A DNA stretch of 64,000 nucleotides from Datisca glomerata (taxonomy: Eukaryota > Streptophyta > Magnoliopsida > Cucurbitales > Datiscaceae): contig QANY01005876.1 of assembly GCA_003255025.1 (NCBI GenBank), forward strand, positions 882,843 through 946,842, in the 5' to 3' direction. The first letter of the stretch is position 1, and every line of letters begins with the position of its first letter. Shown here piece after piece: positions 20,098-44,800 of this stretch. A model generated the notes under the pieces. It worked only from the letters and a program-made list of their open reading frames with translations, was not told where the DNA came from and searched no databases. A program made the position numbers and the translations under genes.

Positions 20098-20305
20098 ATT
20101 ACTTGAAGGGTTGAAGTAGTTAAAAAAAACTTGAACCCTTCAAGTAGTCTCATTAGCATTAGATAGTTTACTGCAGGACTAAAAAAATTATTACTTGAAG
20201 GGTTCAAGTACTAAAAAATACTACTTGAAAGTTTCAAGTAGTGTCTTTTAACTACTTGAACTCAAGTATTATTTTTTGACTACTTGAACCCTTTAAGTAG
20301 TCTCA
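20098..20305. repeat. palindrome array 3 of MULE-1
   Basis: About six copies, some imperfect, inside an intron of the minus-strand gene. Confidence 0.85.
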
Positions 20306-22304: not shown

Positions 22305-22357
22305 TGATTTCTTACTGAAGGTTTAAAATAGTTATAGAAAATTACTTGAACCCTTCA
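22305..22357. repeat. palindrome array 5, cut at the inversion breakpoint
   Basis: A degenerate copy and then ACTTGAACCCTTCA, which stops four bases after the loop. The expected AGTAGT arm is replaced by gypsy sequence. Confidence 0.8.
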
Positions 22358-23547
22358 CCGAATAAAAGCGATGAGTTTGAAAGGCAAAGGAAAGGGAAGA
22401 CCAAAGAAAGCGACAATGATCATGAATTCCAAGGAGAAATGCATGGCGGCCAAGTGATAGACCCAAATATAATAAAAGGTACGGAGAAAGAAAGAGTAGT
22501 GTCTGAAGAAGAAGTACGTGAATTTTTGAAGCTCATCAAGCAAAGTGAGTATAAGGTGATAGAACAACTTAATCGCTTACCTGCTCGCATATTTTTACTC
22601 TCACTCTTTCTGAATTTTGAACCACATCGCCAAGCATTATTGAAGGTTTTAATCAAGCATATGTTTGTCATGACATTACGGTGGAGAAATTGAGTGGAAA
22701 TGTAGGAAATATTACTGCACCAAATATTATCACTTTCACAGATGATGAAATCCCTACCGATGGTACCGGAAACACCAGAGCTCTACATATATCCATGAAA
22801 TGTGGGGATTATGTTGTCGCAAAAGTATGGATTGATAATGGCTCGTCTCTAAATGTAATGCCAAGATCCACACTAGCAAAGCTCCCTGTGGACGCAACAC
22901 ATATGCAACCGAGCATGATGATAGTAAGAGCATTCGACGGTACATGAAGAGAAGTAGTCGGAGACATAGAGATAGAAATTCGAATCAGGCCATGCATATT
23001 CAATATTGTTTTCCAAGTGATGGATATAAATCCAGCATACAGTTTTCTTTTAGGTCGACCATGGATTCACTCTGCCGGGGAAGTACCGTCTTCATTACAT
23101 CAGAAGCTGAAATTTATAATTGATCATAAACTCATTGGTATATGTGGGGGAGAAGATTTATTTGTATCCAAGCCGGCTACCATGTCGTATGTTGAGGCGG
23201 CAGAAGAAGCATTGGAGTGCTCATTTCGATCATTTGAGATTGCGAACACTACATTTGTTGCTAGTGGGAAACTCACTCCAACATCAATCCTATCAAAAGC
23301 TTCTCAGATGGTGGCAAAGTTGATGATAAAAGGGGGATACAAGCGAGGCAAAGGACTCGGGGGTAAGTATCAAGGCATAAATAAGTTAATCGAGTGGAAC
23401 AAGAATGAACAAAGGTTTGGGCTTGGATATAGACTGACCAAGGCTGATAGAAGGAGAATGGAAGCTCAAAAGAAAGAAAAGAGGATTGCTAGGCTCGAAA
23501 ATAGGGAATTCGATATGGAAATGGTGATCATACCCTCATATTTCTAA
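22358..23547 (+). pseudogene. gypsy gag end, aspartic protease and G-patch
   Basis: The frame opens without a start inside the gag-protease linker (REFLKLIKQSEYKVIEQLNR). After a frameshift near 22680 comes the retropepsin: VWIDNGSSLNV with the active-site Asp followed by Asn-Gly instead of Thr/Ser-Gly, as is usual in Tat elements, and SFLLGRPWIH as the flap-distal block. A stop at 22945 splits it. The second frame (23017-23547) includes a G-patch, GGYKRGKGLGGKYQGI, near 23325-23375. The protease would mature gag-pol. The G-patch is a lineage marker of unknown use. Confidence 0.85.
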
Positions 23548-24099
23548 ATCCTTTAGAAGTGGGAGAATTTCATTCGAAGAACCGGTTATAGTAGAGCAGT
23601 ACAACCTTGGAGATGATATCACCGAGCTTTCAATATCTGCAATCTTGGGAAAATCATCAAGTGCAAGTACAGAGGACTTGGTTTCTCGATACGATTCAGA
23701 TCATGAGCTTAACAATTGGGACGTCACCGAGCTACAAGTGTTTCTCAAGAATTTTCAAGAGTAATGTGTTCATGCCAAAATTTTAATGATTCTACCAATG
23801 CCTTAGGAATTTCATTGTTGTGGGCCTATATTCTCATCTATTTCATGTCATCTCTTTGAACGAAAATCTAAAAACTCGTTTCATCTCCTTTTGCTAATGA
23901 TAATTATAATTCCAGTTCTTTATGTTCTTCCTTTAATGTCTACTTTTTCCATTTCTGAAATGTTTTTCATACTCATGCATTGTTTTTTTTTTCCTCGCCT
24001 TCTTTTCATCCAATAATCCGATTCAGGTTCGAGAACGGTGATTTTGAAACAAGAGCATAAGCAATAACTTTAACAATCTCATTCTTAGCGTAGAGTTAG

Positions 24100-25310
24100 A
24101 TGAAAGTGACGAGGATAATTTCGAACTATCTCCGGAAATGTTAAGAATGGTAGAGGAGAATGAAAAAATAACTCAACCATATCAAGAGTTAACGGATGTG
24201 GTAAATTTGGGATTGGAGGGAGAGAAGAAAGAGTTCCAAATCGGCACTTCTATGACAAGCCAAAGCCGTCGAGAATTAATTGACTTACTCAAAGAGTATA
24301 TTGAAGTCTTTGCATGGTCTTACCAAGATATGCCAGGTCTTGACACTGATATCGTGGTTCATCATTTGCCATTTATGCCCGAAAGTAAACCAGTGCGACA
24401 AAAGTTACGGAAAATGAAACCAGACATGCTGGGACAGATCAAAGAAGAAGTTAAAAAGCAAGTAGATACGGGTTTTCTAGAAGTAGCAAAATACCTCGAA
24501 TGGGTTACTAACATAGTCCCAGTGTTGAAGAAAAATGAGAAAGTAAGGATGTGCGTCGATTATAGAAACTTAAATCGGGAAAACCCTAAGGATAATTTTC
24601 CATTACCCCATATCAATGTCTTAGTAGATAACGCTGCATGTCATTCAACCTTCTATTTTATAGATGGAGTTTTGGGGTATAACCGAATCAAAATGGCTCT
24701 TGGAGACCGTAAAAAGATCACTTTTATAACTTTATGGGATACATTTTGTTATAAGGTTATTCCATTTGGTCTAAAGAATGCAGGGGTGACTTACCAACGG
24801 GCAATGGTAACACTGTTTCATGATATGATGCATAAAGAAATCGAAGTGTACGTTGATGATATGATTGCCAAATCTCGTCAAGGGGAAGATCACACTGTCA
24901 CTCTGCGAAAACTATTTGAACGGTTAAGAAAGTTCCAGTTAAAGCTTAACCTGACAAGGTTCGAGTCATTATTGATATGCCACCACTTGGTTTTGTCATG
25001 AGCAAGGAATGAATAAAAGTTGACCCTGACAAAGTTTGAGCCATCATTGATATGCCACTACCTCAAACTCAGAAGGAAGTTGGAAGTTTCTTGTGGAGAT
25101 TAAATAACATATCCCGATTCTCAGAGCTAACTACAACTTGTGAACCTATATTTAAACTTCTCCGTAAAAGTAATACAGAAGGATGAAATGATGATTGCCA
25201 ATTTGCTTTTGAGAAGTTCAAGCAATACTTGAAAAATCTGCCTATACTTGTTCCTCCAACTCCAGGGCGTCCACTCATTTTGTATCTTACAGTAACATAA
25301 AAATCCATGG
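24100..25310 (+). pseudogene. gypsy reverse transcriptase, RNase H lost
   Basis: The open frame 24138-25001 covers most of RT: DMPGLDTDIVVHHLP, KVRMCVDYRNLN, PFGLKNAGVTYQRAM and the active-site YVDDMIAKS with both aspartates present. Beyond 25000 the thumb continues with stops (IDMPLPQTQKEVGSFL) to LILYLTVT at about 25297. There, where RNase H should begin, the sequence goes within a few codons into the linker before integrase, so RNase H and any archaeal-type RNase H are deleted. Also odd is a partial local repeat at 24957-25060 (the ATTGATATGCCAC stretch occurs twice). Confidence 0.88.
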
Positions 25311-25332
25311 CACCGCAGACTTTAAGGAAGAA

Positions 25333-26655
25333 GTGCAACCCATAAAAATTGAGAAGCGAGATTTTCCTGCTCATTGTATGAGTATTGAAGAAGAGCCAGA
25401 CACAAGACCATGGTATTACGACATCAAACAGTATATAAAGAATGGAGAATATCCATCCAAAACTTTTGAGAATGATAAACGCACTATTAGAAGATTGACC
25501 ATGTGTTTCTTCTTGAATGGTGAAATACTCAATAAAAGAAACCATGATATGGTGCGCTTAAGATGTGTTGATGCAAGGGAAGTGAATCAAACCATAGAGG
25601 AAGTTCACGAAGGAATTTGTGGAGTTCACTAATGGACATATGATGGCCAAACAAATCTTGAGAGAAGGATATTATTGGTTAACTCTAGAATCTGATTGCA
25701 TCAAGTATGCCAAGAAATGTCATAAATGTCAAATTTATGCGGATAAAATTCACGTATCCGCATCTCCTTTACATGTAATGGACACGCCTTGGCCGTTATC
25801 TATGTGGGGCATAGACGTCATGGGTCCTATCAAACCCAAAGCCTCTAACGGGCATCGTTTCATTTTGGTCTCTATGGATTATTTTACCAAATGGGTGGAG
25901 GCAAATTCTTATTCGAGTGTAACCAGAAGTGCAGTTGTTAAGTTTATTAAAAAGGAGATAATTTGTCGATATGGTTTATCTGGAAGGATCATCACAGATA
26001 ATAGGATAAATTCAAATAACAAGATGATAAAAGAATTATGTGAGGAATTCAAAATTAAGCATCATAATTCATATCTTTATCGTCCGAAAATGAACAGAGC
26101 AGTGAAAGTAGCCAATAAGAACATAAAAAGGATCATAGAGAAGATGAAGGAGGTTTATAAGGATTGCATGAGATGCTCTCATTTGCATTGCATAGGTACC
26201 GCACATTAGTCCGAACATCAACTGAGGCAACGTCATTCTCTTTGGTATATGGCATGAAAGCGGTCCTTCCAATTGAGGTGGAAATACTCTCTCTTAGAGT
26301 CTTAATGGAGGTGAAATTAGAAGAAGTAGAGTGGGTACAAACACGATATAAGCAATTGAATTTCATCAAGGAAAAAAGATTTGACTGCATTATGTAGAGG
26401 ACATTTATAACAAAGAAAAATGATGCACGCATATGACAAAAAATTGCGTCCCTGATGTTTCTGAGAAGGAGACTTGGTGTTAAAAAAGATACTCTCATAT
26501 TAAAAGGATCACCGGGGGAAGTGGACCTCAAATTACGAAGGACCTTTCATTGTCAAGAAAGCTTTCTCGGGAGGATTTCTCATACTAACAAACATGGATA
26601 GAGATGATTTACCGCACACAGTTAATTCTGATACAATCAAGAAATATTTCGTTTG
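25333..26655 (+). pseudogene. gypsy integrase with lost catalytic glutamate
   Basis: Three overlapping frames (25333-25632, 25619-26209, 26164-26397) joined by frameshifts. The HHCC finger ends in CHKCQ near 25725. The core has WGIDVMGPI (first Asp) and IITDNR (second Asp, in a context changed from the usual DNG). The third catalytic position, in the block YRPKMNRAVKVANKN, is Lys where the family has Glu. The C-terminal part continues degenerate to about 26655, with a final block resembling KKYFV. Integration would not be possible with this protein. Confidence 0.87.
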
Positions 26656-27544
26656 ACCGCTATAAGTATGGGGAAAATGAAGTTAGACAAAAAAATGTTT
26701 TTTAAAAAAATAGAGTTGTCTCGAATACTGGAGAAATTCTTCCGCCATTTTTTTTTCTTTTTCCAAATCATCATTTGTAAACATTATTCATCATCAATGA
26801 AGAGCCATTTTTCTTTCTCAGTTGACAAATACATATACTTCCTCTTCTCCTTATTTCCATTATTTCATTTTCCTCTCAATTCTAAGATATCATTAATTAT
26901 GCTTGAAATAACTCAGAAGCATAAACTTGGTCAAGTGAAAGCTAATTAAAAAAGAAAAAAGAAAAGAATAGGAACTAAGAAAGATGGTCTGAGTACGAGG
27001 GGAAATCTGAAAATTCATCACGAGAAAGTTGATATGCACATAACGAAAGCTAAAGCACGATTGAAGGATTGCAATTAAAGTACAAAAAAAGAAGCAAAAT
27101 GTGGAGAAATTATTCGTTTTTCTTCATCAACGACGTGAAGCCGAATACTGGAGCACAAACCAATGACTAAGGATGCATCATTTTCTTGAAAGTATGCTCG
27201 ATACTTCATTGCGAGTTCATGACCTTAGGCCAAGTGATTGATTTGAAGGGTGAAGGATATGGCGACATTAGTCAACTTTCAAAAAAATCATCACAAATAT
27301 TTTCAATCATGCATAGCACGTATGCACTCAAAATCACTATTTTGCATTTATATTCAATAATTACAATGGATAGACATGCATCATATTGATCTGTTTTGAT
27401 GCATTTCAAGTGCATGAATAATTTAAAGATATTCTTTCAAAATCCATACATGACTTTCTAACATTTAGAGCATGCATTAGTCTAGCTCTTGCACCATATG
27501 AAACTTGTAAATATCAGATCAAATATCATCTCAACATCTTTAGT
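26656..27544 (+). other. 3' untranslated region of the gypsy element
   Basis: Non-coding, AT-rich sequence between integrase and the tandem repeats. No ORF of note. Confidence 0.6.
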
Positions 27545-28430
27545 TAAATCAAACCTGAATCGAGTTGAGGTCAAAGCCTACGTCTATCCAGGTTCGTTTC
27601 CTTCCAAATATCTCGGTTAAATCGAACCCGACTTTGTCGTGGTCGAAGCCCGGTGTCAGCGCTTGGTCCATTTCAATTAATATGGTTAAATCGAACCCAC
27701 ATCGACTCGAGGTCGAAGCCTGCGTCTATCCAGGTCAACGCACTTCCTTTATCTATGGTTAAATCGAACCTGCATCGAGTCGAGGTCGAAGCCTGCGTCT
27801 ATAAAGGTCCATTTCCTTTCAAATATCTCGGTTAAATCAAACCCGACTTTGTCGTGGTCGAAGCCCAGTGTCAGCGCTTGGTCCATTTCAATTAATATGG
27901 TTAAATCGAACCCATATCGATTTGAGGTCAAAGCCTCCATCTATCCAGGTCCACGTCCTTCCTTTATCTATGGTTAAATCGAACATGCATCGATTCGAGG
28001 TCGAAGCCTGCATCTATCCAGGTCCACATCCTTCCTTTATCTATGGTTAAATCGAACCCGCATCAAGTCGAGGTCGAAGCCTGGCTATATTCAGGTCTAT
28101 GTCGTTTCTTTATCTTTGGTTAAATCGAACCCGACTTTGTCGCGGTCGAAGTCCGGTGTCAGCGCCTGGTCCGTTTCAATTAATATTGTTAAATCGAACC
28201 CGCATCGAGTCGAGGTCGAAGCCTACGTCTATCCAGGTCCGCGTCATTTCTTTATCTTAGGTTAAATCGAACTGACTTTGTCGCTGTCGAAACTCGGTGT
28301 TAGCGCCTGGTCCATTTAAATTTATAGGGTTAAATCGAACTCGAATTGAGTCGAGGTCGAAGCTTGTGTCTATCCAGGTCTATTTCATAAGTTTCATCAT
28401 TTCATAGAACCCGAATAAGTCGAGGTTTCT
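27545..28430 (+). repeat. tandem repeat of two unit types (69 and 73 bp) in the gypsy 3' region
   Basis: About twelve units, each beginning GGTTAAATCGAACC. The 69-bp type has GACTTTGTCGTGGTCGAAG and GTGTCAGCGC. The 73-bp type has CGAGTCGAGGTCGAAGCC and TCTATCCAGGTC. Spacings between unit starts at 27615, 27684, 27757, 27830, 27899, 27972, 28045, 28118 and on are 69 or 73. Variable 3' tandem repeats are typical of Tat/Ogre elements and can seed satellites. Confidence 0.93.
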
Positions 28431-28511
28431 ATTTCCTTTATCTATATAGTTTTTCTCGATCAAAATACTTATCTACACCTTTGTACACCTTCTAAGTTTA
28501 TAAGCGTGAAC

Positions 28512-28523
28512 AAATGGGGTAGC
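28512..28523 (+). other. polypurine tract of the gypsy element
   Basis: AAATGGGGTAGC directly before the LTR start. Its last five bases (GTAGC) equal the proposed target duplication, which weakens that duplication as evidence. Confidence 0.55.
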
Positions 28524-30877
28524 TGTAGATACCGTATTTTGTCCGGTTCAATACTTTGAAAATACAAAAAAAAATTACCCATATACTAGTCTAAGGCTAG
28601 GTGTATGATTTGAAAAATAGCTCAATGCCTAAGAAATAAGAAAATTTGTCCAAAGATTAAAAATAAAAAAAGGAACAAAAATACTAAAATTAAAAAGTGA
28701 AGTCCTAAGTTTGCCTATAAATAGAGGGGATGTTTTCACTTGAAAAGGGAGATTTGGGAGGGTGGGGAAGATAAGAGATTTTAGAGAGAGAAAGAGAGAT
28801 TTTGAGAAAATAGTGAAAAATGGAAAGAATGAGAGTTTTCATTTCTATTCATCTTCCATCTTCTCATTTTTTTTATTAAGGTAGTTCAAATCTCTTACAT
28901 TTTAGCTTACAATATATTTTGTTCATTCTAATTAATCATCTCTCTTCTCCATACTCATGTATTTGATATTTCTTTGTTTCATTTTCCATATATAGGTTTG
29001 TTTGCTCATTCTTTATCATTTCTCCTACTTTTAATCTTAAGTTTTATTTTCATATATTATTTATCTCTCTACAAGTTTGATGATGAGATTTTTTGTCATC
29101 AACTCAATCAATGAAAATGAAGATAAAATTTTGAGGGGTGTAAAATTAACTCAATGTGAATCAACCATTTAATAGGTTAAAAGTGTACATTTGATGAAAA
29201 GATCTCCTATGATAATTTCTCATACATGAAAATGCATAAAATAGAGAGTAAAATCTCTATACAAGATTATGCAAATATTTAAGCGTTGATTTTTTTATGC
29301 TCTTACAGATCTTCTCTTATTTTCTTTTTTAAATTTTGACCATCATTTTTGTGATACTTGTTTGAACTAGTTACCATCCATGATCATTCCTAGCAATGAA
29401 GGAAGAAAGAAAAAATGATAATTAGTGAACTAAGTGGTCCAAAATAAAAAAATGGTATATTTATATCCCAAACAAAAATTATTTTATTTTGAAAGTTTTA
29501 TGAATTTTCTTTAGTGACACTTGTTTAAACTAGTTACAATCCATGATTATTTCTAGCAATAAAGGAAGAAAACAAAAATGGTAATTAGTGAACTAAGTAG
29601 TCCAAAAATAAAAAAATGATATATTTATATCCCAAAGAAAATTATTTATTTATTTTTACTGACACTTGTTTAAATTAATTATCATTCATGATCATTATTT
29701 TGCTATTTGATTAGCATTGGGTGAAGAAATAAAAAATAATAATTAATAGACCATGTAGTAAAAAAGCATGCTCATACTAATCATATGAAATTAAGCATTT
29801 TTTTCATAGATTAATTTATTTTATGCATAAAAAATTTATTATCAAGTTATTTACTAAACAATTATATATATATGTCTGTGTGTGTGTGTTTAAAGTGAAA
29901 AATTAAAAAAAAAAGACTGAGAGTGACGTCACCTTCTGTCACTTAACATGAGGGTGATGTCACCCTCTGTCACTTAACAGGAGGGTGACATCACCCTCTG
30001 TCACTTAACAGGAGGGTGACGTCACCCTCTGTAAAAAAAACTTTAATTTTTTTGTTGTTTATATTTTGTTTTTGTTTTTTTATGTTAATTTATTTTTCTA
30101 TTTTTAGTAGATATTATTAGTTTATTGTAATTTATTTTTAATTATTTCATTGTCTTGTTTCATTATTTTCACCCTACATATTCTTTTTTAAAATTTATCA
30201 TCTCTAACATTCATTTCCATTGTTTTTTTATATTTATAGTTTTTATCTCTTCTTATTTATTTATGTATTATTTTCATATATCACGGTTGTATGTAATTAT
30301 TATTTTATTCTTTTATCATCAAAATTGACGCTCGTAAATTAAAACCATAACAATTTGATTTAAATTTTATAAATTTTTTTATTTAGTTTTCAGTAAAAAA
30401 TCCGATGACGGACTTTAGAATTTTGGGATACCAAATTTTTCAAACTACCGAGGTGAGGAGTTATTTTTAGGATACTGAGAGTAACTCCAATAACGCTTTG
30501 ATTAAAAAAAATTATGTTTTCAATGGTCTTTATACCACCCGTTAAAGGTAATTTATTTGCTCATTTTTATGATGCAAAATATACCAAATGGGACATTCAA
30601 AATTGAATTTTTATAACATTATTTTTTGAAAAAAATAATTTGGATAGTATTTGATTAAATTTGATAACCATTTTTTATAATGGACGGTGTGGGGTGCTAA
30701 TATCTTCTCCATACGTAAATGACTCCCGACCAACTTTAAATTTTCACAGGCCAAAATATTTAATTTTAAATTTGGGTAACCAATCACGTCCTAAAATGAT
30801 TGGTGGTGACTCTGAATTTTTTTTCCTCAAAAAATGATTTTTCAATCGCCGCTCCGCGTCGTATGCACGTTGCGACA
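28524..30877 (+). repeat. 3' LTR of the gypsy element (2354 bp)
   Basis: Starts TGTAGATACCGTATTTTGTC and ends ACGTTGCGACA. A TATAAATAG box is at 28716-28724. It aligns along its length with the reverse complement of 44801-46982, the other LTR. It is followed by GTAGC (30878-30882), matching the flank of the other LTR. Confidence 0.92.
29925..30035 (+). repeat. 31-bp minisatellite with TGACGTCA palindromes inside the LTR
   Basis: Three to four units containing GAGGGTGACGTCACCCTC (variants TGATGTCA and TGACATCA), linked by TGTCACTTAACAG. Each unit is self-complementary. The array and its flank are absent from the other LTR near 45640-45670. Confidence 0.9.
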
Positions 30878-31399
30878 GTAGCCATTTGGACAGTTAGCTA
30901 TTGATATTAGTTGAAAGAAATAACTTTTTTTGTAAGACTGCAATGTGTGTTAGATTTATTTCTTTGGTAGTCTCTATATGTGGTAGTAATTAGATCAAGA
31001 ATAATTATGTGAATCTGATCTTTTTTTTACAAAATCAATCTTCATTAGGACTTTCACGTAATATAAATAGGGTAATCCAATTTGGGGGAGGATTACTCAA
31101 GGAGTAAATATGATACAACCCATTGGCATGAGAAGATCTCTTTAGCTACAAGGCTTAAATTAGGAGTTACATAGAAAATCTAATGGCAGAAAAATTAGTT
31201 AGTGTCCTCAAAATGCTTCTCAAAATAGCATCATTGATGAGATCCATGCGAACAAAATGATTCCATAATTCCTAGCATGCTAGCTCCACCTCTAAATAAA
31301 GCCAGAATTAGCTAGGCAATGGTTGATGCTTTAAAGCAGTGCCTCTAATAAGGAGGAGGAAGGTGATTCAGAATCTGCCCAAATCTACCCACCTTCTAA

Positions 31400-34300
31400 G
31401 AATTCACCGGCTGAGCCCCTGCACACCCAGCCACTGTCTTTTTTAGAGCTATAACTACCCCAAGAGAAATCAAGGTTGATTTTAACGAATGGTAACGAGG
31501 GGGCTACCAAGAAGTCCATTCCAAGCGATTGAGAACTCTGGGGAGAGCTTTGGTATCCAACTTGTAGGCCAAGACTTCAGACCTATGAGGATTAGCCTTT
31601 CCTGAGTTGGAGATTCTACCTCAATTTCATAAAATAAACAACAAGGATTAGATATGTATATATTTTCTTGATAAGGTGCTCTTGGTGGGGAAAAAATCAT
31701 GCCAAAGTCTCCAAACAAAGAATTTAACTTTAGGAACAACATTTAGATTCCAAACAGTTCGCCAGAGAGTATAGAAGAACTGGCCGCTTCACTACGTTTT
31801 TTAAGAACATCAACTTTGTATCCCAAACTTACAGAATATATACCATTTTTAGCATAGGACCACCAACCGACATCAACATTCCAACCTCCTGAGTTCAAAA
31901 GCATGAGATCTGCAACTATTTTAATGGAATCATTTTTTGGAGTATGAGGGAGAAAATCACATTTTCTAGGAAGCCAAGGGTCCATCCAAAGATAAATGTT
32001 ATTTCCAGAGCCTACCCTCCAGATGAAGCCTTCTTGGATGAGAGATCTGCCCCACAACTGCTTCTCCAAGCCCAAGACGGGTTCGCACCAAGCTTCCCTT
32101 GAAAAAACCTGAGTTGGGGAAATATTTATGTTTTAATACATAAAAAAGAATGCTAGAAGGGTTAGAAAGTAAAAATCAACAATATTTTTTGCTAATAGAG
32201 CCTTATTGAAACATTCAAAATCCTTAAACCCGAATCCCCCACAATTCTTTTCCTTAGTCAGCAAGTCACATGTTGTCCAATGTATCTTTCTCTTGCTACT
32301 AGTAGATCCCCACCAAAACTGTTAAAGGCATCTGCATATAATATTATAGTTTTTCACCGTGAGTTTGAAGCATTGCATAGTGTATACTGGAAGCCCATAA
32401 GCCACTGCTTTGATCATCATTTCCTTTCCTCCTTAGGATAAAATATGCTCAGCCCAACCATGGATACGACTTTCTAGATTCCTTCTAATGTCATCAAAGA
32501 GTCTTCTCTTTGATCTTTCAAAGGTAGAGGGTATACCCAAATACTTTTCAAAACCTCCACAATGAGATATGTTAAGTAATGAAGCCAGATAATGCTGAGT
32601 TTTAGGTAAAACGTTACGAGAGAAACATATAGAGGTTTTTTGAAAATTTACCAGTTGTCCTAATGCTGCACAATAGTCCCTAATGATGGGCTTGATGGTG
32701 GTAACCTCCTTTTTTGATGCCTTGCATAAAATGACAACATCATCTGCAAAGAATAAGTGTGAGATCGATGGGTTAAGCCTGCAAGGAGAAAAGCCATGTA
32801 TTGATTTCAATTCAACCGCTCGGGATAATTATTTTGAAAAGACTTCATCACATAAGATAAAAAGGTAGGGTGATAAAGGATCAACCTGTAAACCACGACT
32901 AAGGTAAATCCTCTCTATAAGCACACCATTGATAATTACCGAGAATGAAACTGTTGTGACACACTCCATGATCCATCTAATCCATTTGTAATGACAATTC
33001 AACCTCAACATGACAACTTCAATGAAGGACCATTCCAATCTATCATATGTCTTAGCCATCTCCAGTTTGATGATCATATTACCCTATTTGCTTTAAGACT
33101 TTACCCTTAAAGAGTGTAGAGCCTCATGGACAATAATGATGTTATCCTGAATGCACCTACCAACAAGGAATGCACACTGGGTAAGGGAATGAGATCCTTC
33201 AAAAGTGGCTTTAGTCTATTGCACAAAACCTTGGAGATGAGTTTATAAACAACATTGCAAAGGGAGATGGGCCGAAAATCCTGCATGGATTGAGGAGCAA
33301 CCATTTTAAGAATAAGACTAATGTATGTAGCATTAATCCCTTTAGGAAGCTATCCAAATGAATGAAATTCTTTTATCATAGCGATTACATCTTTGGCTAT
33401 ACTACTCCATTGACCTTGAAAGAATCATGCATTGAACCCTGAACCTTTAGAGATGCGTTTATAAATAACATTACAAATGGAGATGGGTCGAAAATCCTGT
33501 ATGGATCGAGGAGTAACCTTTTTAAGAATAAGGTTGATGTGGGTAGCATTAATCCCTTTAAGAAGCTATCTAGATGAATGAAATTATTTTATCATAGCAA
33601 TTACATCTTTGGCTACACTACTCCATTGATATTAAAATAATCTTATATTGAACCCATCATGACCTGGAGCTTTGGAAGAGTTAATCTGAAACAGAGCTGT
33701 GTCTATCTCTTCTTCCCAAAAAGGAGCTGTTAGACTTTTATTTTGGCTGTTAGTGACCCTAGCATACAGGACTTCCACTAAATCATTTACCCTTATTGGA
33801 TTTTGAGAGGTAAAAAATTTATGGAAGTACTCATTGGCAATCCTCTTAATATCATTCTGCTCCATTCTCAAAACCCCATTATCATCCTCTAGGCCTGGAA
33901 TTTAAAGTTTTCTGCTCCTTTGTTTCAATTTTGCATGGAAGAAGGTTGTGTTGCTATCTCCCAACAAAAGCCAATCTACATGAGTCGTGTCCTTCCAATA
34001 CTTTTCTTTGTCAATAACAACTTTCTCCAATTTCCCTTCCAGGTCTCTAATTGCTAGCATATGCCGACCATGTTTTAAGTAAAGGCCTTTGAGCTGGGAT
34101 GCAAGGTCCTTAATTCGGGCCTGAGAGTTGAACGGATTCTTCCTCCTTCATTAAACCAGATTTTCCCTAGTTAATTTAATTTTTCGAATCATATCCTCAC
34201 CGGCCGAGCCTTGATTTATAGAAGCCCAAGTCTGCATAATAACTTGTTTACAACTATCAACTTTAGCCCATCTAATATCAAAATGGAAACGTTGGGGCAC

Positions 34301-35003: not shown

Positions 35004-36518
35004 GGCTGCCTGGAGACCCATTAAGGTTGGTCTCCACCACCTTTTTGTGACAGTAATTTTCTACATAGAGCTTCTTCGGAGTCAATCCATGTTTCTCTTG
35101 TGCAAGAAAACCTTCATTTATCAAAGCCTCCTCAATATTATTTTTGTTGGCTTGTTGACGGGTTCTCTTTAACGTTTTCTGTTTGACTACCAATTGTAGC
35201 TTGTTTGCTGATTTAGACGATCGTCTACTTCATTTGGGTTGTGCCTGTGTTTTGTTTTTTTTCCCTTTTTGTTCAACGGTGGATTTCTATCTGCCATTAT
35301 CAATGGCCCATGTAATAGCATATCCATAGACTTTCAATTTCATGAGGTATAATGGCCCTAACTGGATCAAAAAAATCCGCGGACGTCTTACTCACCTCTT
35401 CCATATTTTGGCATGTAGTGATTTGATCATTTAATGCACTCCCTTCCTTTGTTGATTATTTAAAATATTTCTAGGACATTCCTCTATGCCCCCGTCATAA
35501 TTACCCTGCCACCTAGGCTTAGGCATCATCATCCTGCCGGGTAAGTGGAGCGTGGTGGGGACAATCAACAAGTCGGAGCTTTGGTCGGAATGCAAACTTC
35601 CAGACATGGTTACTCCCCTGCATTATCTCCTGATTTTCCTTCCAAAGACTGCCGATGGAGTTCTCAGAAGTCTCTTCTGATGAAAGGGCTTAGAGTATTT
35701 GCTTTCCCATATTTGGTTTTCCTTTATGATCGGATCGTGGCTTGCATCATGTTGCTGCTCGAAGCGAGTCTATAATGGAACAAGATATCCACCCCTGCTT
35801 GTTGATCCTTCAGCAAATCCGAGCATAATTGATCATCGTGACCAATTCTTCCATAATAGGCAGAAAATGTAGGCAGCCTTTCGTACTTGTACTCGACCCA
35901 TATATGAGATTTTGCATTTCGAATAAGACTCCCTATGATGAGGGGCTGGGTTATATCAATTTCAGTCCGTACTCCAATGTAGCATCGTTTTACGGCTCCA
36001 TGCGTCACTTTCTCATTATCAATGCGGATGAACTTACCTAGTTGCTTACATAGTTTCCTAATCAAGTTTTCCCCTCTGCAATTAAGCGGAAGATTATGAA
36101 GCTACATCCAAAATCTACTCTTTTGAACTTTAAATTTATGGATATTTATGTTGGTCTCCCATGGAGTAAATGCCATTAGCTGACCGTCAACCAACCAAGG
36201 TCCACATTCATTAACAAAAGACAAATCTTCCTTTGTAGTAAAAACTACCTGAAATAGGTTGTCTCTGACTTCAATAAATCTGACTGGATTTCTAAGGTTC
36301 CATGCAGCACATAGACTTTCCTTGAGCGCGATTCGATTAACATTTTTTGTTGAAATAAGGGAACCTAGTAGACTCATATCACAATCACCCCGTCCATCCT
36401 GCTTCATTTGTTCATTCACCTAAAAAATCTTCATCTCCTTTTCAGTAAGTTTGAACTCCTGGATAAGTGCTTGCACTTCCTCTATATCTTGATCTGGTCC
36501 TTGAGAATAGCTCGCCAT
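34885..36518 (-). pseudogene. LINE ORF1 (DUF4283 and zinc knuckle), broken
   Basis: Starts at the ATG at 36518 (MASYSQGPDQDIEE). The frame 36419-36102 holds the DUF4283-type RNA-binding region (ALKESLCAAWNLR, then FTTKEDLSFVNECGPW and GQLMAFTPW). The frame 36065-35724 continues to a knuckle, SAYYGRIGHDDQLC, in which the first cysteines are lost. The basic C-terminal part (35193-34885) overlaps the start of ORF2 in another frame. Stops separate these blocks. In plant LINEs ORF1 binds the RNA. Confidence 0.8.
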
Positions 36519-36599
36519 TGCTTAGAAAGCTTAGCAAAACATAAATTTTGAAAATTTTGTAGAGGTCCAGATGCTACAAATGTAGTTGGAGCAACAAGG

Positions 36600-38620
36600 T
36601 ATATCAGCGACGATGATATCCAGATGCTTACAAATGTAGCTGTACAATACATATTAAATCACCACCAAACACCTGAAACTCATGCATATCAGTGACGATG
36701 ACCTGTAAGAAAAGACATTTCATAACATATTATACGAACTATTGTTTATTTATTTTTGCTAATTCATTAAAAATAAGAAATTTAAATTTAAACAGGCTTA
36801 CAGGCATTGCCCACGAACGTTGCATCTGCTTACGTAGACACCTTTCAACCCATTGAGTTAATGTCGTGATCATGTAACTAGATGCTACTCGACGCTTATA
36901 AAACCATCTTTGAGAAAGTTGCCTCATAAATTCAATAAAAATGTAACAGGTAAACCACAAGCATCTTTCAATACATTATTGAGGCTTTTTGATATATTTG
37001 TTGTCATGACATTATATCAATGACTAACAAAATGAGATCGAGCCCATTTCTCATACCCAACACCTTTAAGGTATGTGGGAATTAAAGGGTAAATAGATTC
37101 TACAGCACGCATATTGACCTCAAAATCTTCAACCGTATATCTTTTTGCACATCGATAGAAAATTGGGTCCACAAGTGAGTTTTTATATTTGAACTTGACA
37201 TTAAACAATAGATGTTACATACAAAGATCGTGAACAGATTTCAGAAACCATTTCGACACTTCCTTTGGAATGTTATTATGTCTATAGGATATAATTACTA
37301 GATTTTCTTTATCGCCAATTACTTCCTTCAATTTTTCAAAAAACCATCCCCAAGACAAATCATTTTCTAAATCTACCACAACAAATTTCATTGGAAAAAT
37401 TTGATTATTACCATCCAACAATGATGCAATCAAAAGCGTACTGAGGTATTTGTTCTTAAAAAATGTACCATAAACTGAAATGACAAGTCTACAATGCTGC
37501 CAGCCTTTCAAAGCAGCCTCCAAACACATGAAAATGTATTTGAATGTGCCATTCTTATCGTTCTGAATAATTGTCACAGTACCTATAAAAAAATAAAAGT
37601 AAATCAGGTATATTGAATATGTAATCAACAAATGATATACTGAAGAAATTAAATACTTAGATCTTTTTTGTTTCAAAGCATAACAATACGATGGTAGTCT
37701 TCCCTATGATTCTTCTGGAGTACCTCGAAGCAAATCCAATGCATTTTGTTTTTGCTTTCCATGCTTTGTAGTAGCTAATAGTAACCACATGCTTCAAACG
37801 CATGTGGTCAATGATATCTTTAGGTGCGGTCCGATCTCGTATGTCATTCCTATATTTACCTTTGATACATTGACCAACAATGTCTGATGTTGCTTGACAA
37901 TGATCACACTGAATAAATTCTACTGAACAATTGTGCTCATTAATATATCCCGGAACCATCTAGAGCGGACCACCTCTGTATGTTGATGCCCGAAAAAACC
38001 ACTTGCATTGGTCATTGACACACCGCGCATTAATTCTTTCCTGATTAGACTTTTCAACCCTAAACTCAAAATTTCCTTTCGACGCAAGCATATGCAACGC
38101 CTTTTTAACTCATATTTATCTTTAAACAATGACTTCTTCTTAATGTCAAAATTATTAGGGACATTTTCTAAATCAACTAGAGCAATAAAAACGTTATCAT
38201 CTTTAGCATGGTCGCATTCTATTGAGTCTGATTGACTATTCCCTCCAAGTATCAAACTTTGAAGCTGACAAGATTGATCAATAACGAAACTAGATCTGTC
38301 AACAATTAGTGGAAAGTTAATACCATTATCATTCCTAATGAGGGAAACGTACCACTCAACATCCCGATCCGATTCTATTTCAACATTGGTAGATGTGAAG
38401 CATTGCCAAATTATAATTTGATAGTAATTTCAAACTTGTCCCTCCTATCAACAGAACCTAGAACCGAAATGATTCCTTCAACCATCTCTATGAATTTCAT
38501 ATTTATATGTACCAAAAAAGTTTTTGATCGAAAGTCAACATATGATTTTGATTCATCCCATCTCCAATCATACATTAAAATCCTGAGGATCTTTGATATT
38601 CCTAAAATCAATTTTATTTA
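36600..38620 (-). pseudogene. MULE-2 transposase, broken and truncated by the LINE
   Basis: The minus strand runs from an N-terminal region at about 38611 (FLVHINMKFIEMVEGI) through the frame 38255-37920 (FFGHQHTEVVRSRWF), the frame 37959-37657 (IIDHMRLKHVVTISYYKAWKAK) and the MULE core 37600-37215 to 37208-37017 (GYEKWARSHF) and 36960-36739. The core reads VISVYGTFFK and VIISYRHNN, where the family has VDGT and SDRH, so both catalytic aspartates are Tyr. The C-terminal part (TDMHEFQVFGGD, about 36700) ends at the LINE, so SWIM and knuckle are missing. It differs clearly from the MULE-1 transposase. Confidence 0.82.
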
Positions 38621-39420
38621 TGAAATAATCAATAAAACAATTAAAAATTATGGAGTTCATTTATAAAAATAAAAAATATTCTCGATTAATAATATAATGA
38701 CGCAAAAAATTGAATACTAACCTTCCATCAAACTGAAAACAAACCCGAACACAATAGTTGCAGATTAAAAAACTCAAAAAAAAAACTTAGCCAAAACTAT
38801 GCAAATCCTTGTATACTATATACTGCCTAAATAATCTTCTGTCAACCACATTCACTCAGTGAAATGATATGTGTTTGACTAAAATATTTTGAGAAATTGT
38901 TGTTCGAGTTGTAGAGGACGAAGATATCAATGAATGTCAAAGAGAGATAACATTGATATTGCGTGAAGTGAGGAAGATGAAATTTGAATTAGGATATAAG
39001 TCGACTAAACTAATACCAGAATTAGATAAAATCAAGGAGATTTAGTTAAAATCAAGGAGATTATGGAAAATAATATTTTTCCATAACCGAAAATCAATTA
39101 TTATAGATATACATTTAAAAACGGATTCTTATTGATTGTAACTGAATAAAGAAATAATTCATAAATTATTAAATAATAAATGTGCAGCCACGTAAGATGT
39201 TATGTTGTAACAAACTATTGAGGGTAAAGTTGTTATGTTTGACTTTCCCGCTCCTTCTTCAAAAATTCAAACAATAGTTCCAGCGATACTATTGCCTATA
39301 TAATCTAGACTACGATTGTAAATTGCTTCACGATATACACCATTAATGACTAATGCAATGATTCATAAATATGATTTATATATACCCATAGACACACACT
39401 TATTACTGTATATAACATAT

Positions 39421-39513
39421 ATATGACATATATGAATATAGCAAATATATGACATATATGAATATAGCAAATATATGACATATATGAATATAGCAAATAT
39501 ATGACATATATGC
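39421..39513. repeat. 26-bp tandem repeat, 3.5 copies
   Basis: Unit ATATGACATATATGAATA plus TAGCAAAT, starting at 39421, 39447, 39473 and 39499, essentially identical. Confidence 0.95.
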
Positions 39514-39916
39514 ATAAACTAATAGAAAAATTCCATCTATCGTGACTGATTCGCCTAACATGATAACTAATATCACAGTTCAAATTATAGCAACCAATGG
39601 TATCGTATGTGTGCTTTTCTTAAGCTGTAATGGATCAATTAAATGCTTCAGATTTGTGAAATGTGATTTGAGTAGGCTTATAATAGGGAATACTCAATGG
39701 CGCGTGCACACACACACATATCATACATACATAGAGTATTCTAGCGATATATATAATATATAAAGTATATAACAATGTATATAGACTTGTATATAGACTG
39801 ATATGTCTGCGCGCGTGATATACACTTATATAAAACATATAAAAGCAATCGATTTATATCGTTATGTGTTATATATAACATATATACTACTAGAATGTTA
39901 TTGTCTATATACATAT

Positions 39917-40075
39917 ATGGAGGGAGGGGTGGGGATGTCAATGGGGTGGGGTGGGGTGAGGCGGGGCAGGATGGCTTCTCCACATCCCCATCCCACTTTA
40001 ATATGTATACCACATCCCCGCCCATTTCCCATTTACGAAAAAAAGGGGGGGATGGGGAATCCCCATTAGGATTAG
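39917..40075 (+). repeat. G-rich/C-rich tract with a G-quadruplex motif
   Basis: GGGG at 39943, 39948, 39953 and 39963, with loops of 1, 1 and 6 bases. C-rich runs at 39980-40030 (CATCCCCATCCC) and G-runs at 40044-40060 could also pair with it as a long stem. Confidence 0.75.
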
Positions 40076-40544
40076 GTTACCCGTGAGTTTTTCATTTTTA
40101 TTTAAGCATGATATTTATGTGTAGAACTTCTCAACGATGGTCTTAGACGATGACATGTGTAAAAATGACGATAATGGATAATAGCGACAAAAGAGCAATG
40201 AAGATAATTTATAAGAAAAAAAATATATGAATCATCTTATTTAATGGTTAAAATAGCTAGTGTAGTGAAGGATTAACAACAATTGTGTTAGGTTGTATAG
40301 TGACATAAAGTTATAGTTTCAATATAATACAATTTTTCTAACAAATATATGTAAAAAACAAACGGGGTGAGGATGGGGTGGGTAACAGGGTACGGAATAT
40401 TATATACATCTTCACCTCATACCCGCGTTGGTTTATTAATAATTACTCTATACTCATCTCGTCACCCATTTATTCACCAAAATTTCAACCTACGAGAGGC
40501 GGGTCCTCGCTGGTTTGGAGACCTATGGCTGATTTGACATCAGG

Positions 40545-40900
40545 GGGAGAGATGGAGAGAGAGAGAGGGAGAGAGAGGGAGAGATAGGGAGAGAGAGAGA
40601 GGGAGAGAGAGGAAGAGAGAGGGAGAGAGAGGGAGAGGGAGAGAGTCGAAGAGAGAAAAACAAATTCAAAGAGAGAGAAACAGAGCCGAAGTGAGAGAGA
40701 GAGAGAAACAAAGTCGACGAGAGAGAAATAGAGTGGAAGTGAGATAGAGAGAGAATTAAAGGATGAAGAGAGATGGAGAGTGAGGGGGCATTACTATAGC
40801 GAAAGAAGGGCTTTCAAAAATTGAAATGAACAGAGTATGAGGGGATGGGAGAGAGGGATAGAGAGAGAGGGAGAGAAAGATAGAGTCTTTAACCGAATAA
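40545..40900 (+). repeat. (GA)n-rich low-complexity tract
   Basis: Interrupted GAGAGAGGGA runs. Open frames here are repeat translations. Confidence 0.9.
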
Positions 40901-41560
40901 TCTCAAGTTTAATAAAATATCCAACGAAATTGAGAGGGGATAGAGAGTGACACAGAGAATTACAAATTATACAGAGGTAAACTACAAAATATATAAATAG
41001 TGAAAAGTATTTAATTTAATTGCAAGTGCTAAATTAATTATTATTTATAGAAAAGTGCTATATATAATGTTTATTTATAATTGTAGACATATTCGTATTT
41101 TGAATTTAATTTGTCTAAATAATAAGAGTTCCACAGTTTTTGTAGGGCTATTCTTGCAACTGGCCCAAAAACTCATATAGGCCATTGGTGACAACTTCTA
41201 GTGCCAAGATCTATATAGATTTGGGCTTTTTGATTAACCAAGCGCTTCAAAGTATTCATCTCTAAGCGTACATCTTAAAAATGAGTTCTCATCAACATTT
41301 TCTCTTAGATGAGATTCTACAACTACATTAAATATTATGAGTTGAAGGTGTATGAAATTGATTGAATAATCGGTAAATAGTTTAACTTTCATGATTTAGC
41401 TTTTTAAGTCATATTACAATAAAATTTACTTAAATTTCTACATACACTGAACAACACATTATCTCAACAAGAAATATAAAACTAATATATATATATATAN
41501 TATATCGAAACCACATCCATTCGTAGGTACAACGGAAGGACTTCGACGCGGTCATATATG

Positions 41561-41643
41561 GACGCAATGCTTTACTTGCTGACCGCAATGCTTTACTTGC
41601 TGACCGCAATGCTTTACTTGCTGACCGCAATGCTTTACTTGCT
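41561..41643. repeat. 21-bp tandem repeat, four copies
   Basis: Unit GACCGCAATGCTTTACTTGC plus T. The first copy is one base shorter (GACGCAATG). Confidence 0.95.
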
Positions 41644-42149
41644 GAGTAGTGGGGTCAATAGTTCCTCTATCCATTTAATGTACAAAGATCATTCTAGTTT
41701 ATGTTCATAACTCTTGATGAAACTTCTGGGAAAAAAAATATGGATCTGTTCAAACTCATTTTTTCTCATATATGAAACAATTGTACGTTTTATTTTTGTA
41801 GGTCATGCTCATGCTTGATATGTTTTTATTGATTAAATAGTTGGCCTGAAAAATGGTCAGTGTTTCATTGTTAGTAATTGTTTTTGTTTATATATCAATC
41901 ATAAATAATCATTTAATTTATGGGTGTTCAAGGTTTGTTTCCATATGTTAATATCTAATTCTTGTAAGTAATTTTGAGTTTGGTCGTCCTAGATTGAGTG
42001 AAATTCTTAAGCTTTGTTTGTTTGGGGGAGAGTGCCGTTAAGGGAAATAAGTTACCTAAAAACAAGATGAAAGCCTCAACAATGGCGAGGGTGGTGGCAG
42101 TGGGAGCTTCTCAGCAGGGGTAAATTGGGTAAAAAAAATTTGGTACTAA

Positions 42150-42640
42150 ATAAATTGAATTGATTCGAACCGAAAATGATCGATTCGGTCGATTCTTTAG
42201 GGATGTTCAATTTGTCAAAATTAAAGAATCGAAGTTTCAATTCGGTACAAAATTTTGGTAGTTTTCGAAATGAACCGAAGCAAAACTTTAGTTTTTTATT
42301 TTTGGTTTTTACATATAATTACATATCGAGCCGAACCGCATCGAAGTGAAACTTTAGTTTTCTATTTATTATTTTTACATATAATCACATATTTGAACTG
42401 AACCACACCGAATCAAAATAAAACTTTGGTTTTATATTATTTTTTAATAATATCCTTTGAAAATATTTAAAAAATATTATTTTTCATCACTAAAGCTTAA
42501 CTAAAGAACCGAACTGAAACTCTCAGTTCAATTTGACTCTTTCTTCATAAGCGGTACGGGTCGGTTTAGAAATTTTGCCAAACTTAAACTTCGATTTGGA
42601 TTATTTTCACCAAAAAAAAAAATTGAACCGTGAATACCCA
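42150..42640. repeat. dispersed AACCGAA-type repeat with internal tandem units
   Basis: Repeated blocks GAACCGAA..AAAACTTTAGTTTT..TTTTTACATATAATTACATAT occur about two and a half times at 42275-42445 with a period of about 70 bp. Such AACCGAACCG-rich repeats are common in plants. The class is not resolved. Confidence 0.5.
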
Positions 42641-43270
42641 TACTTCTGAGATGAGTTGGGTGGGAGAAGAGTATGGCATCGTTGTTTGGGAGATGAGGGA
42701 ATTCTTGATATTAAAAGATAGTTAAAAATATTAACATGGAAAATAACGATTGTGGGATTGTTAATCTAATATTAAAATAATGAAGTTCTATCTCATTTTT
42801 CAATATACAGATCGTTCGTCTCACTTAAGTAAAACAGAAGGGAGATTGAAGTTATTTTCCTGATATTGCAATGTTGTAAGAAAGAAAAAAAGATGTGTGA
42901 GTGTGAGAATGAATGAAATGAGTGTGTTGAAATAGTTTTGAGAATATAATAAAGTGCATTGAGAAATTTACAAGAATTTTAAACTTGATTGAAATGATTT
43001 AGAAAATGAGTATATGGAGAACTTTTAGGATATGAATGTAATTTACTTCTTTAGTATTTGTGTCATTTAACAATTCTAAAGAAGTGTTATTGTTTTATGA
43101 CCATTTACAATAATATCTAGTAAATAACCGATTCAATTTTACTGCAAGATTTTATTTCTATAATACCGTTCAACTTTTATGATAGGTTTTTCATATTTGT
43201 TTGTTATGATTTTCTCTTATTTTGATGATATAGTATGGCACAGAGATGTGTGGTTATTCCTTTAAAATTA
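42641..43270. other. AT-rich intergenic region
   Basis: No gene recognised. It ends with the presumed MULE-1 target duplication (43262-43270, TTAAAATTA). Confidence 0.5.
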
Positions 43271-43385
43271 GGGTTATTTGTATAAATATATCATTTCTAT
43301 TTTTATTAGGATTTTTATACTCCATTTTCAAAACACAAAAATTTATACTCCTAACCCACTAAATCAAAATTTATTTTCTGTTCAT
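43271..43385 (-). repeat. MULE-1 terminal inverted repeat, right copy
   Basis: Begins GGGTTATTTGTATAAATATA. Preceded by TTAAAATTA, whose reverse complement TAATTTTAA pairs with TCATTTTAA at 14631. Confidence 0.78.
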
Positions 43386-43589
43386 ACACACTGCGCAATG
43401 AGTTACCATCAAGTAGGAAAAGTTGGTAACTTGCCTCACATTCTTTTTCGTGTCTCTTCTGTTTCCATTCTCATCTGTTTCCGCTCAATTGCTCTCTTCT
43501 TCCTCTTCGTCTCCATTCTCATATGTGCTATCTCTTCTCGCGTCTCTTCTGCTTCTTCTTTGGCAAGACAGTCCCTACAAGTCGTGTTC

Positions 43590-43790
43590 TTCTTCTTCTT
43601 GTTGTTGTTGTTCTTCTTCTTCTTCTTGTTCTTCTTCTTCTTGTTCTTGTTCTTGTTCTTCTTCTTGTTCTTGTTCTTCTTGTTCTTGTTCTTGTTCTTC
43701 TTGTTCTTCTTCTTGTTCTTCTTGTTCTTCTTGTTCTTCTTGTTCTTCTTGTTCTTCTTGTTCTTCTTCTTCTTCTTCTTCGTCTGTTTC
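43590..43790. repeat. (TTCTTG)n tract
   Basis: About 200 bp of TTCTTG and TTC units. Frames on both strands are open (Leu/Phe/Val, Ser/Cys, Lys/Asn, Glu/Gln), which is a property of the repeat. Confidence 0.93.
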
Positions 43791-44039
43791 CAGAGCACTA
43801 CCACATGATACCCAAGCATGACACCCGCCTACGGACAAACTCGGGTACCATTTTTTTTGGGACGTAGAAAATGACTTAGAGATTGGAACATTTTCTTTTG
43901 TTCTTCTTACTGGACTTTTTAAGTTCTGGGATTAGGAGAAAATATTCTAGGGTTTAGGTTGTCTCTCTTGATGAATATAACCTTCCGCGTGTCTCGATTG
44001 GTTAATGTTTTTTATAGATGAATGTGATTATCATTTGAA

Positions 44040-44465
44040 TATATTGGCTACTTGAAGAGTTCAAGTAGCTATTCAGGACTACTTGAACCTTTCAAGTAGT
44101 CAATTTGAAAATAATATCTCACTACTTAAAAACTTCAAGTAGTCATTTTGATTCTGGAAGTGAAAATAAGTGACTACTTGAAGGGTTCATGTAGTGTATC
44201 TGAGTACTTGAAACCTTCAAGTAGTGATTCAGAGTCTGAAAGTCAAAACAAGCAACTACTTGAAGGGTTCAAGTAGTGTATATGACTACTTGAATGCTTC
44301 AAGTAGTGTTTTTAAATCTGAAAGTCAAAATAAATCACTACTTAAAGGGTTCAAGTAGTGTATCTGACTACTTGAACCATTCAAATAGTCAAAACAAATC
44401 AATACTTGAAGGGTTCAAGTAATTGTATATCGCTACTTGAACTCTTCAAGTAGTCATTTGTTCAC
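44040..44465. repeat. palindrome array 6 of MULE-1
   Basis: About fourteen copies of the palindrome, with spacers such as CTGAAAGTCAAAACAA. Confidence 0.88.
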
Positions 44466-44780
44466 GATTTCAATTGTTTGTTTCATAAGAATGAACTTTC
44501 GTGAGCCTGCACGGGAATCGTAGTTCCACGCAGGTATTCCACTACTCATTCGCTAATCCTAAAGGGAAAGCCCGGGTATAGGGCTAGTGCATATGTGTGA
44601 AAGTAGAAATTATGTAAAGAAATATACTTCGTAAAAAAAACATATGTACAACTACAGTCACGAATTAGAAAAAAACAATGAATCAAATAAACAAACCAAG
44701 AACCATACAAAAGGATAGCATATGATGAAATTTTGGCTTGACTCTCTATCGATCTAAATATTGTTAGACCAATTGTTTCT

Positions 44781-44797
44781 TCCCAGTAGAGTCGCCA
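44781..44797 (-). other. primer-binding site of the gypsy element
   Basis: TGGCGACTCTACTGGGA on minus, three bases after the LTR end. This motif is characteristic of Tat/Ogre elements and is usually attributed to a tRNA-Arg primer. Confidence 0.75.
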
Positions 44798-44800
44798 AGC

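What the first reader, a model, noticed from the sequence alone, without database searches (positions are those of the whole stretch)
22358..44475. A 22-kb inversion that splits a MULE and a Tat/Ogre element at the same time
Seen: MULE-1 stops inside a palindrome at 22357 and gypsy sequence starts; at 44475 the reverse happens, with MULE-1 palindromes passing into gypsy leader. The two gypsy pieces are complementary halves (protease to 3' LTR at 22358-30877 on plus; 5' LTR, PBS and leader at 46982-44476 on minus). The two MULE ends at 14640 and 43271 are direct, not inverted. Flipping 22358-44475 makes the MULE ends inverted with matching 9-bp flanks (TCATTTTAA and TAATTTTAA), gives one minus-strand gypsy element with GTAGC on both sides, and brings the MULE-2 transposase and DUF1985 gene into the same layout as in MULE-1. 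Inference: a two-breakpoint inversion younger than the gypsy insertion, with loss of gag at one breakpoint. Caveats: GTAGC also ends the polypurine tract, and a misassembly between repeats could imitate this.
Basis: partly seen in the sequence, partly recalled or inferred. Interest (0 to 1): 0.88.

Follow-up and report, generated by a model that had tools for sequence, protein, structure and literature searches.

The report
Inversion splitting three plant transposons
A stretch of about 22,000 bases in a flowering-plant genome appears to have been cut at two places, turned round and rejoined, which split two jumping genes and separated the halves of a third; the event is well recorded in the sequence but is an ordinary kind of genome rearrangement, and an assembly error is not excluded.

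Summary
At 22357/22358 and about 44475/44476 a Mutator-like element (MULE-1) meets a Ty3/gypsy element; each occurs as two complementary halves in the wrong relative orientation. Of 28 single inversions of seven blocks only one, 22358-44475, meets all seven criteria. Flanking duplications agree: 8 of 9 for MULE-1 (chance 0.0003) and 5 of 5 for gypsy (0.0017), the latter weakened because GTAGC also ends the polypurine tract. LTRs are 91.9% identical, so the gypsy insertion is some million years old and the inversion younger. Loss of gag at the breakpoint is not shown: the element has another deletion away from the breakpoints. A misoriented contig could mimic all this; no reads or second assembly were available. 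By-product: MULE-1 carries 50 copies of a private palindrome beside a DUF1985 gene, as in VANC anti-silencing transposons.

The parts
14640..22357 (+). MULE-1, larger part: end with TIR, TTC-rich tract, transposase (pieces in 16519-17744, +), palindrome arrays, DUF1985 gene (pieces in 21619-22285, -)
   Evidence: Pfam PF10551 37.5 bits and PF09331 45.4 bits, PF03108 26.8 bits; TIR; 39 of 50 palindrome units
43271..44475 (+). MULE-1, other end: TIR, TTC-rich tract, palindrome array; now in the same direction as the end at 14640
   Evidence: TIR alignment of 103 columns, score 88; 11 of 50 palindrome units; array similarity to about 44479
14631..14639 (+). left flank of MULE-1, TCATTTTAA
   Evidence: 8 of 9 match to the flipped right flank; chance 0.00031 in 400000 random pairs
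43262..43270 (-). right flank of MULE-1, TAATTTTAA when flipped
22357..22358 (.). left inversion junction, MULE-1 palindrome unit to gypsy
44475..44476 (.). right inversion junction, MULE-1 array to gypsy leader (uncertain by about 5 bases)
22358..28523 (+). gypsy internal part: region before and around protease (by eye), G-patch frame, RT (24048-24998), deletion at about 25312, integrase (25598-26206), tandem repeats (27536-28380), polypurine tract
   Evidence: Pfam RVT_1 63.6 bits, rve 34.9 bits, G-patch 24.5 bits; deletion; tandem repeats
28524..30877 (+). gypsy 3' LTR
30878..30882 (+). GTAGC, 3' flank of the gypsy element
44801..46982 (-). gypsy 5' LTR
44476..44800 (-). PBS-like sequence and leader of the gypsy element
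   Evidence: read by eye; the one frame scanned here, 44549-44884, has no Pfam match
46983..46987 (-). GTAGC on the minus strand, 5' flank of the gypsy element
30878..41173 (-). MULE-2, transposase half with a LINE remnant; end at 41173
   Evidence: Pfam PF10551 49.7 bits, PF03108 37.5 bits; TIR 40994-41124 pairs with 51086-51216, 63.5 bits, extended
46983..51270 (-). MULE-2, DUF1985 half; end at 51270
   Evidence: Pfam PF09331 31.9 bits, below its cut-off of 35.1; BLASTP to the MULE-1 DUF1985 protein 1.1e-11; TIR
41174..43270 (.). spacer between MULE-1 and MULE-2 before the inversion
   Evidence: lies between the two mapped ends

Best explanation
The window records a two-break inversion of 22358-44475 (22,118 bases). 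Before it, MULE-1 was one element of about 8.9 kb; about 2.1 kb further on lay MULE-2, into which a Ty3/gypsy (Tat/Ogre-type) element had inserted on the minus strand and a LINE had also inserted. One double-strand break fell in a palindrome array of MULE-1, the other inside the gypsy element, and the piece between was rejoined the wrong way round by end joining without long homology. That split MULE-1 and the gypsy element, and it reversed one half of MULE-2 relative to the other. Shown: the anatomy, the orientations, the flanking duplications of MULE-1 and gypsy, and that no other single inversion of these blocks does as well. Inferred: the breaks, end joining, and that it happened in the plant rather than in the assembly.
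For: Only 1 of 28 single inversions meets all 7 criteria; the present order meets 0; the best of 224 transpositions meet 5. MULE-1 TIRs and flanks. Gypsy LTRs, complementary halves and GTAGC flanks. MULE-2 TIRs direct now (63.5 bits; 0 of 2000 shuffled pair-strand comparisons, made from 100 by 10 shuffles, reach it, maximum 41.0). Transposase and DUF1985 of the two MULEs are homologous, and the flip gives them the same layout. The motif of MULE-1 ties 43271-44475 to MULE-1. Neither junction lies in an LTR, so LTR-LTR recombination is not the cause.
Against: No second assembly, accession or read set was seen. The gypsy TSD is weakened by GTAGC at the end of the polypurine tract. MULE-2 shows no clear TSD at the ends that I assigned (by eye). 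The gypsy element lacks sequence between its halves, so they do not meet exactly, and it has another deletion. Microhomology at the breaks could not be judged without intact copies. The seven criteria were chosen after the layout was known.
Confidence: 0.73

Rival explanations
1. Assembly artefact: the order in the plant is the uninverted one, and a contig of about 22 kb whose ends fell in repeats (palindrome array, gypsy gag region) was placed the wrong way round. The missing gag would then be an assembly gap.
For: Both junctions lie in transposon sequence, the MULE side in a repeated unit, and gag is missing between the two gypsy ends that face the junctions (no gag match in the pieces scanned). 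Everything else is predicted equally by this rival.
Against: No N within 2.9 kb of a junction; the only three N in the window are single bases at 41500, 50916 and 52501. Inside the window the array units nearest the junctions match other units only with mismatches; the rest of the genome could not be searched for longer identical repeats.
Confidence: 0.2
2. Separate events: two MULE-1-type elements and two related gypsy elements, each pair truncated against each other by its own deletion, with no inversion.
For: The LTRs differ by 8% and could come from two insertions; repeats are common here.
Against: It must explain by chance the complementary halves of two elements, the 8 of 9 and 5 of 5 flank matches (frequency 0.00031 and 0.00168 for random flanks), the absence of any further MULE-1 end in 64 kb, and the MULE-2 end orientation.
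Confidence: 0.05
3. The inversion was made by MULE transposase (alternative transposition) or by recombination between the inverted LTRs rather than by end joining of two breaks.
For: A citrus MULE has been reported in inverted orientation at a deletion, with dissimilar 9-bp flanks 2 Mb apart (PMC4334395, passages incl. part of the abstract); inverted LTRs of over 2 kb are present.
Against: The junctions lie 7.7 kb and 1.2 kb inside the MULE-1 ends and outside both LTRs.
Confidence: 0.02

Closest known systems
Small inversions in transposon-rich plant DNA formed by two breaks and end joining (class recalled)
   Same: Two breakpoints, no long homology seen at the junctions, repeats cut at both
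   Different: Here three elements give orientation marks, so the earlier order can be read without an outgroup. Searches (20 of 38 papers listed; 15 of 53; 1 of 1) showed no title or abstract start with this design; bodies were not read
CitMule rearrangement in clementine (PMC4334395, passages)
   Same: A MULE with 9-bp flanks found in inverted orientation at a rearrangement
   Different: There the element itself was inserted between two target sites beside a deletion; here the breaks are inside the element
VANDAL MULEs with VANC (PMC5735166 and PMC10398659, passages)
   Same: MULE transposase, a DUF1985 protein, and a short motif repeated in noncoding parts
   Different: MULE-1 keeps TIRs of about 100 bases, the motif is a palindrome unlike YAGTATTAY or AGTTGTCC, and binding is untested
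Ogre/Retand lineages of Tat (PMC6317226 and PMC11963269, passages)
   Same: RT before integrase, a gap of 286 bp before the RT frame, tandem repeats before the 3' LTR
   Different: The defining aRH region was not found, apparently deleted, and gag was not found

Membership tests
Two-breakpoint inversion | One flip restores order and orientation of all split elements | tested here: met
   1 of 28 single inversions meets 7 of 7 criteria, criteria chosen after seeing the layout
Two-breakpoint inversion | Junctions present in genomic DNA | not testable with these tools
   no reads; search of the own genome unanswered nine times
Mutator-like element (MULE-1) | MULE transposase domain | tested here: met
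   PF10551 37.5 bits, cut-off 27.6; PF03108 26.8 bits, cut-off 25
Mutator-like element (MULE-1) | Terminal inverted repeats and 8-11 bp TSD | tested here: met
   only after the flip: TIR, TSD 8 of 9; TSD range from PMC6446971 (passage)
Mutator-like element (MULE-2) | Terminal inverted repeats and 8-11 bp TSD | tested here: inconclusive
   TIR-like pair well above shuffles; no clear TSD at the ends assigned (by eye)
VANDAL/VANC-type MULE (MULE-1) | DUF1985 protein | tested here: met
   PF09331 45.4 bits, cut-off 35.1
VANDAL/VANC-type MULE (MULE-1) | Short motif repeated in noncoding parts of the element | tested here: met
   50 palindrome units, none elsewhere in the window, none in the four homology-supported coding stretches; full gene models were not made
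VANDAL/VANC-type MULE (MULE-1) | The protein binds the motif and removes DNA methylation | not testable with these tools
   needs experiment
VANDAL/VANC-type MULE (MULE-1) | Degenerate or missing TIRs | tested here: not met
   TIR alignment of 103 columns; some elements of the VANDAL group do have TIRs (PMC6446971, passages)
VANDAL/VANC-type MULE (MULE-1) | Transposase falls in the VANDAL clade | not tested
   no tree was built
Tat/Ogre Ty3/gypsy | aRH domain between RH and integrase | tested here: inconclusive
   matches of 12 of 15 homologues stop at 25312 while those proteins run on for 45-157 residues; the region looks deleted
[quoted passage not shown]
   286 bp, 23762-24047, lie between the listed stop-to-stop frames of 70 aa or more, but the frames are broken elsewhere too; 274 bp from PMC6317226 (passage)
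Tat/Ogre Ty3/gypsy | TSD of 4 or 5 bp | tested here: met
   GTAGC on both flanks, with the polypurine-tract caveat; lengths from PMC6317226 (passage)

The most novel reading that the evidence does not exclude
MULE-1 is a VANC-type self-protecting transposon in a eudicot that keeps its TIRs: its DUF1985 protein recognises the palindrome ACTACTTGAAnnnTTCAAGTAGT, 50 copies of which fill its noncoding parts, and those same palindromes, able to form hairpins, made the element a break site where the inversion began.
Probability: 0.15. Interest if true: 0.65.

Novelty: new member of a known kind. Interest (0 to 1): 0.38.

Why it matters
It is a clean case in which neighbouring and nested transposons let one read an inversion, its two breakpoints and its relative age from a single sequence, and it suggests a way to find others: sets of elements whose ends are all put right by one flip. 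The MULE-1 palindrome array beside a DUF1985 gene is a testable candidate for an anti-silencing system outside the Arabidopsis VANDALs.

Tried and rejected
Own-genome search: nine identical requests to the genome search did not complete, so other copies of MULE-1 and the gypsy element could not be compared. DUF1985 piece against the protein collection: 32 candidates, none at E <= 0.001. RT piece in viral contigs: one stretch matched a pattern, no relative. Rfam at gathering scores and tRNA scan: nothing. LTR-LTR recombination and MULE transposase as the inverting agent: rejected from the junction positions. A TSD for MULE-2: none clear by eye. A TSD for the LINE remnant: only one exact repeat of 9 bases and three of 8 (two of them inside the first), not tested against chance. 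The idea that palindromes attracted the break: the left MULE side ends inside a unit and the right side starts in a degenerate one, but units fill about 13% of MULE-1 by my arithmetic (50 x 23 of 8923 bases), so this is weak. Over-represented 9-mers in MULE-2: none comparable to MULE-1, highest count 5.
Full report
What was checked. At 22357 a MULE-1 palindrome unit stops after CCCTTCA and gypsy coding sequence begins. Near 44475 a MULE-1 palindrome array passes into the leader of a minus-strand gypsy element; the alignment to another array unit runs on to about 44479, so that junction is good to a few bases.

The gypsy halves. The plus-strand half has RT (RVT_1, 63.6 bits) and integrase (rve, 34.9 bits), tandem repeats (27536-28380) and an LTR at 28524-30877. 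The minus-strand half has an LTR from 46982 to about 44801, a TGG-starting PBS-like sequence and a leader (by eye; the primer tRNA was not tested). The LTRs are inverted to each other and 91.9% identical over 2144 aligned bases, K2P 0.086. With rates of 1.3e-8 and 7e-9 per site and year (recalled) this is 3.3 and 6.2 million years. No coding domain was found in both halves, and no gag match in the pieces scanned; of the minus-strand half only one frame, 44549-44884, was scanned.

The flanks. GTAGC follows the 3' LTR and precedes the 5' LTR on the element's strand. Random 5-base flanks match with frequency 0.00168 in this window. MULE-1's flanks agree at 8 of 9 positions when flipped; random flanks do so with frequency 0.00031.

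MULE-1. Its two ends align over 103 columns (score 88). With the first 30 bases of either end as query, the other end has 25 identical bases and the next best place in the window, either strand, 21. The 9-mer CTACTTGAA, both strands, occurs 46 times in 14640-22357, 15 times in 43271-44475 and once elsewhere; dinucleotide shuffles give at most 1 (200 for each part). Fifty palindrome units ACTACTTGAAnnnTTCAAGTAGT (up to 4 mismatches) lie in the two parts, 39 and 11, and none elsewhere. This marks both parts as one family. That they are one element rests on the flanks, the complementary content and the shared flip.

MULE-2, the extra witness. Transposase pieces on the minus strand in 36631-38109 and a DUF1985 gene on the minus strand in 48251-48921 are homologous to those of MULE-1 (best BLASTP 1.8e-22 and 1.1e-11). 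In MULE-1 the two genes are on opposite strands. I searched the outer regions (38430-43270 against 48000-58000) for terminal repeats and found a direct pair, 40994-41124 and 51086-51216 (63.5 bits; next direct 34.6, best inverted 31.9). A gapped alignment reaches outward to 41173 and 51270, and none of 2000 shuffled pair-strand comparisons (100 by 10 shuffles, two strands) exceeded 41.0 bits. These ends also point the same way now and would be inverted after the flip. The gypsy element and a LINE remnant lie between them. No clear TSD remains.

One flip for three elements. I coded the window as seven blocks and tested every single inversion (28) and single block transpositions with or without reversal (224) against seven criteria. 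The present order meets none, the inversion 22358-44475 alone meets seven, the next best inversions (5) meet four, and the best transpositions (4) meet five. The two MULE-2 orientation criteria are the same test twice. The criteria were written after seeing the layout, so this shows uniqueness, not a probability.

Order of events (inferred). MULE-2 was there first; the gypsy and LINE elements inserted in it; MULE-1 stood about 2.1 kb away; then breaks in MULE-1 and in the gypsy element were rejoined with the piece reversed. The junctions lie in neither LTR and far inside the MULE-1 ends, which speaks against LTR recombination and against transposase. End joining is the remaining common route, but microhomology could not be judged.

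The gag question. Matches to homologous RT-RNase H proteins stop at 25312 in 12 of the 15 proteins compared, and those 12 run on for 45 to 157 residues beyond. Of the other three, one stops at 25264, one itself ends at a match to 25222, and one matches the RT part only. The last 200 residues of four of them match nowhere else in the window. The window goes on with the linker to integrase (by eye). So the end of RNase H, and probably the aRH region, was lost in a deletion that is at no inversion junction, and gag may likewise have been lost before or after the inversion.

Artefact or real. The only N in the window are three single bases, none within 2.9 kb of a junction. A misoriented contig closed without N would look the same. 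I put about 0.2 on this.

Host. An MBF1c gene at 5202-5633 is closest, among the named records in the 120 of 523 hits listed, to eudicot proteins, the best being Ziziphus jujuba at 87%; the species is not known.

Known context. Plant LTR elements mostly have 5-bp TSDs (93.4%) of nearly random sequence (1008 of 1024 5-mers), and Ogre elements have a gap of on average 274 bp between two ORFs (PMC6317226, passages); here 286 bp lie between the listed frames, in an element with broken frames. VANC proteins carry DUF1985 and bind short motifs repeated in noncoding parts of VANDAL MULEs, which have degenerate TIRs (PMC5735166 passages; PMC10398659 passages). A 2026 review says that MULEs with a captured Ulp1 domain, related to these, occur in grapevine, melon and rice (PMC13317346, passages). 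No Ulp1 match was found in the MULE pieces scanned. Two searches for DUF1985 with Mutator-like or transpos- listed two and five papers; no title or abstract start shown there reports this palindrome, and of these papers only passages of PMC5735166 were read.

Verdict. A well-supported inversion of an ordinary kind, with an unusually clear record; assembly error not excluded. The DUF1985 plus palindrome array deserves its own test.

Noticed in passing
14640-22357 and 43271-44475: 50 copies of the palindrome ACTACTTGAAnnnTTCAAGTAGT, private to MULE-1 in this window and outside its homology-supported coding stretches, beside a DUF1985 gene: a candidate VANC-like target array.
   Followed up: partly
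25312: Internal deletion in the gypsy element that removes the end of RNase H and probably the aRH region, away from any inversion junction.
   Followed up: yes
29866-30034: About 160-170 bases in the 3' LTR without counterpart in the 5' LTR, holding 3.7 copies of a 31-base unit with the palindrome GAGGGTGACGTCACCCTC.
   Followed up: no
10198-13275, minus strand: Remnant of a caulimovirid-like element in broken pieces: coat-protein domain PF22909 46.6 bits, DUF7746 86.4 bits, RT below its cut-off.
   Followed up: no
31485-36419, minus strand: LINE remnant inside MULE-2, several broken frames that look RT-like (one with a Pfam RVT_1 match below its cut-off); no clear target-site duplication.
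   Followed up: partly
55884-56608 and 60126-60885: Direct repeat of about 0.75 kb at 74% identity, not identified.
   Followed up: no
14790-15085 and 43580-43790: Long TTC-rich tracts just inside both MULE-1 ends; TTC repeats are linked to instability in citrus (PMC4334395, passages).
   Followed up: no
28519-28523: The polypurine tract ends in the same GTAGC as both gypsy flanks; whether this is chance or element sequence carried at the 5' end is open.
   Followed up: partly
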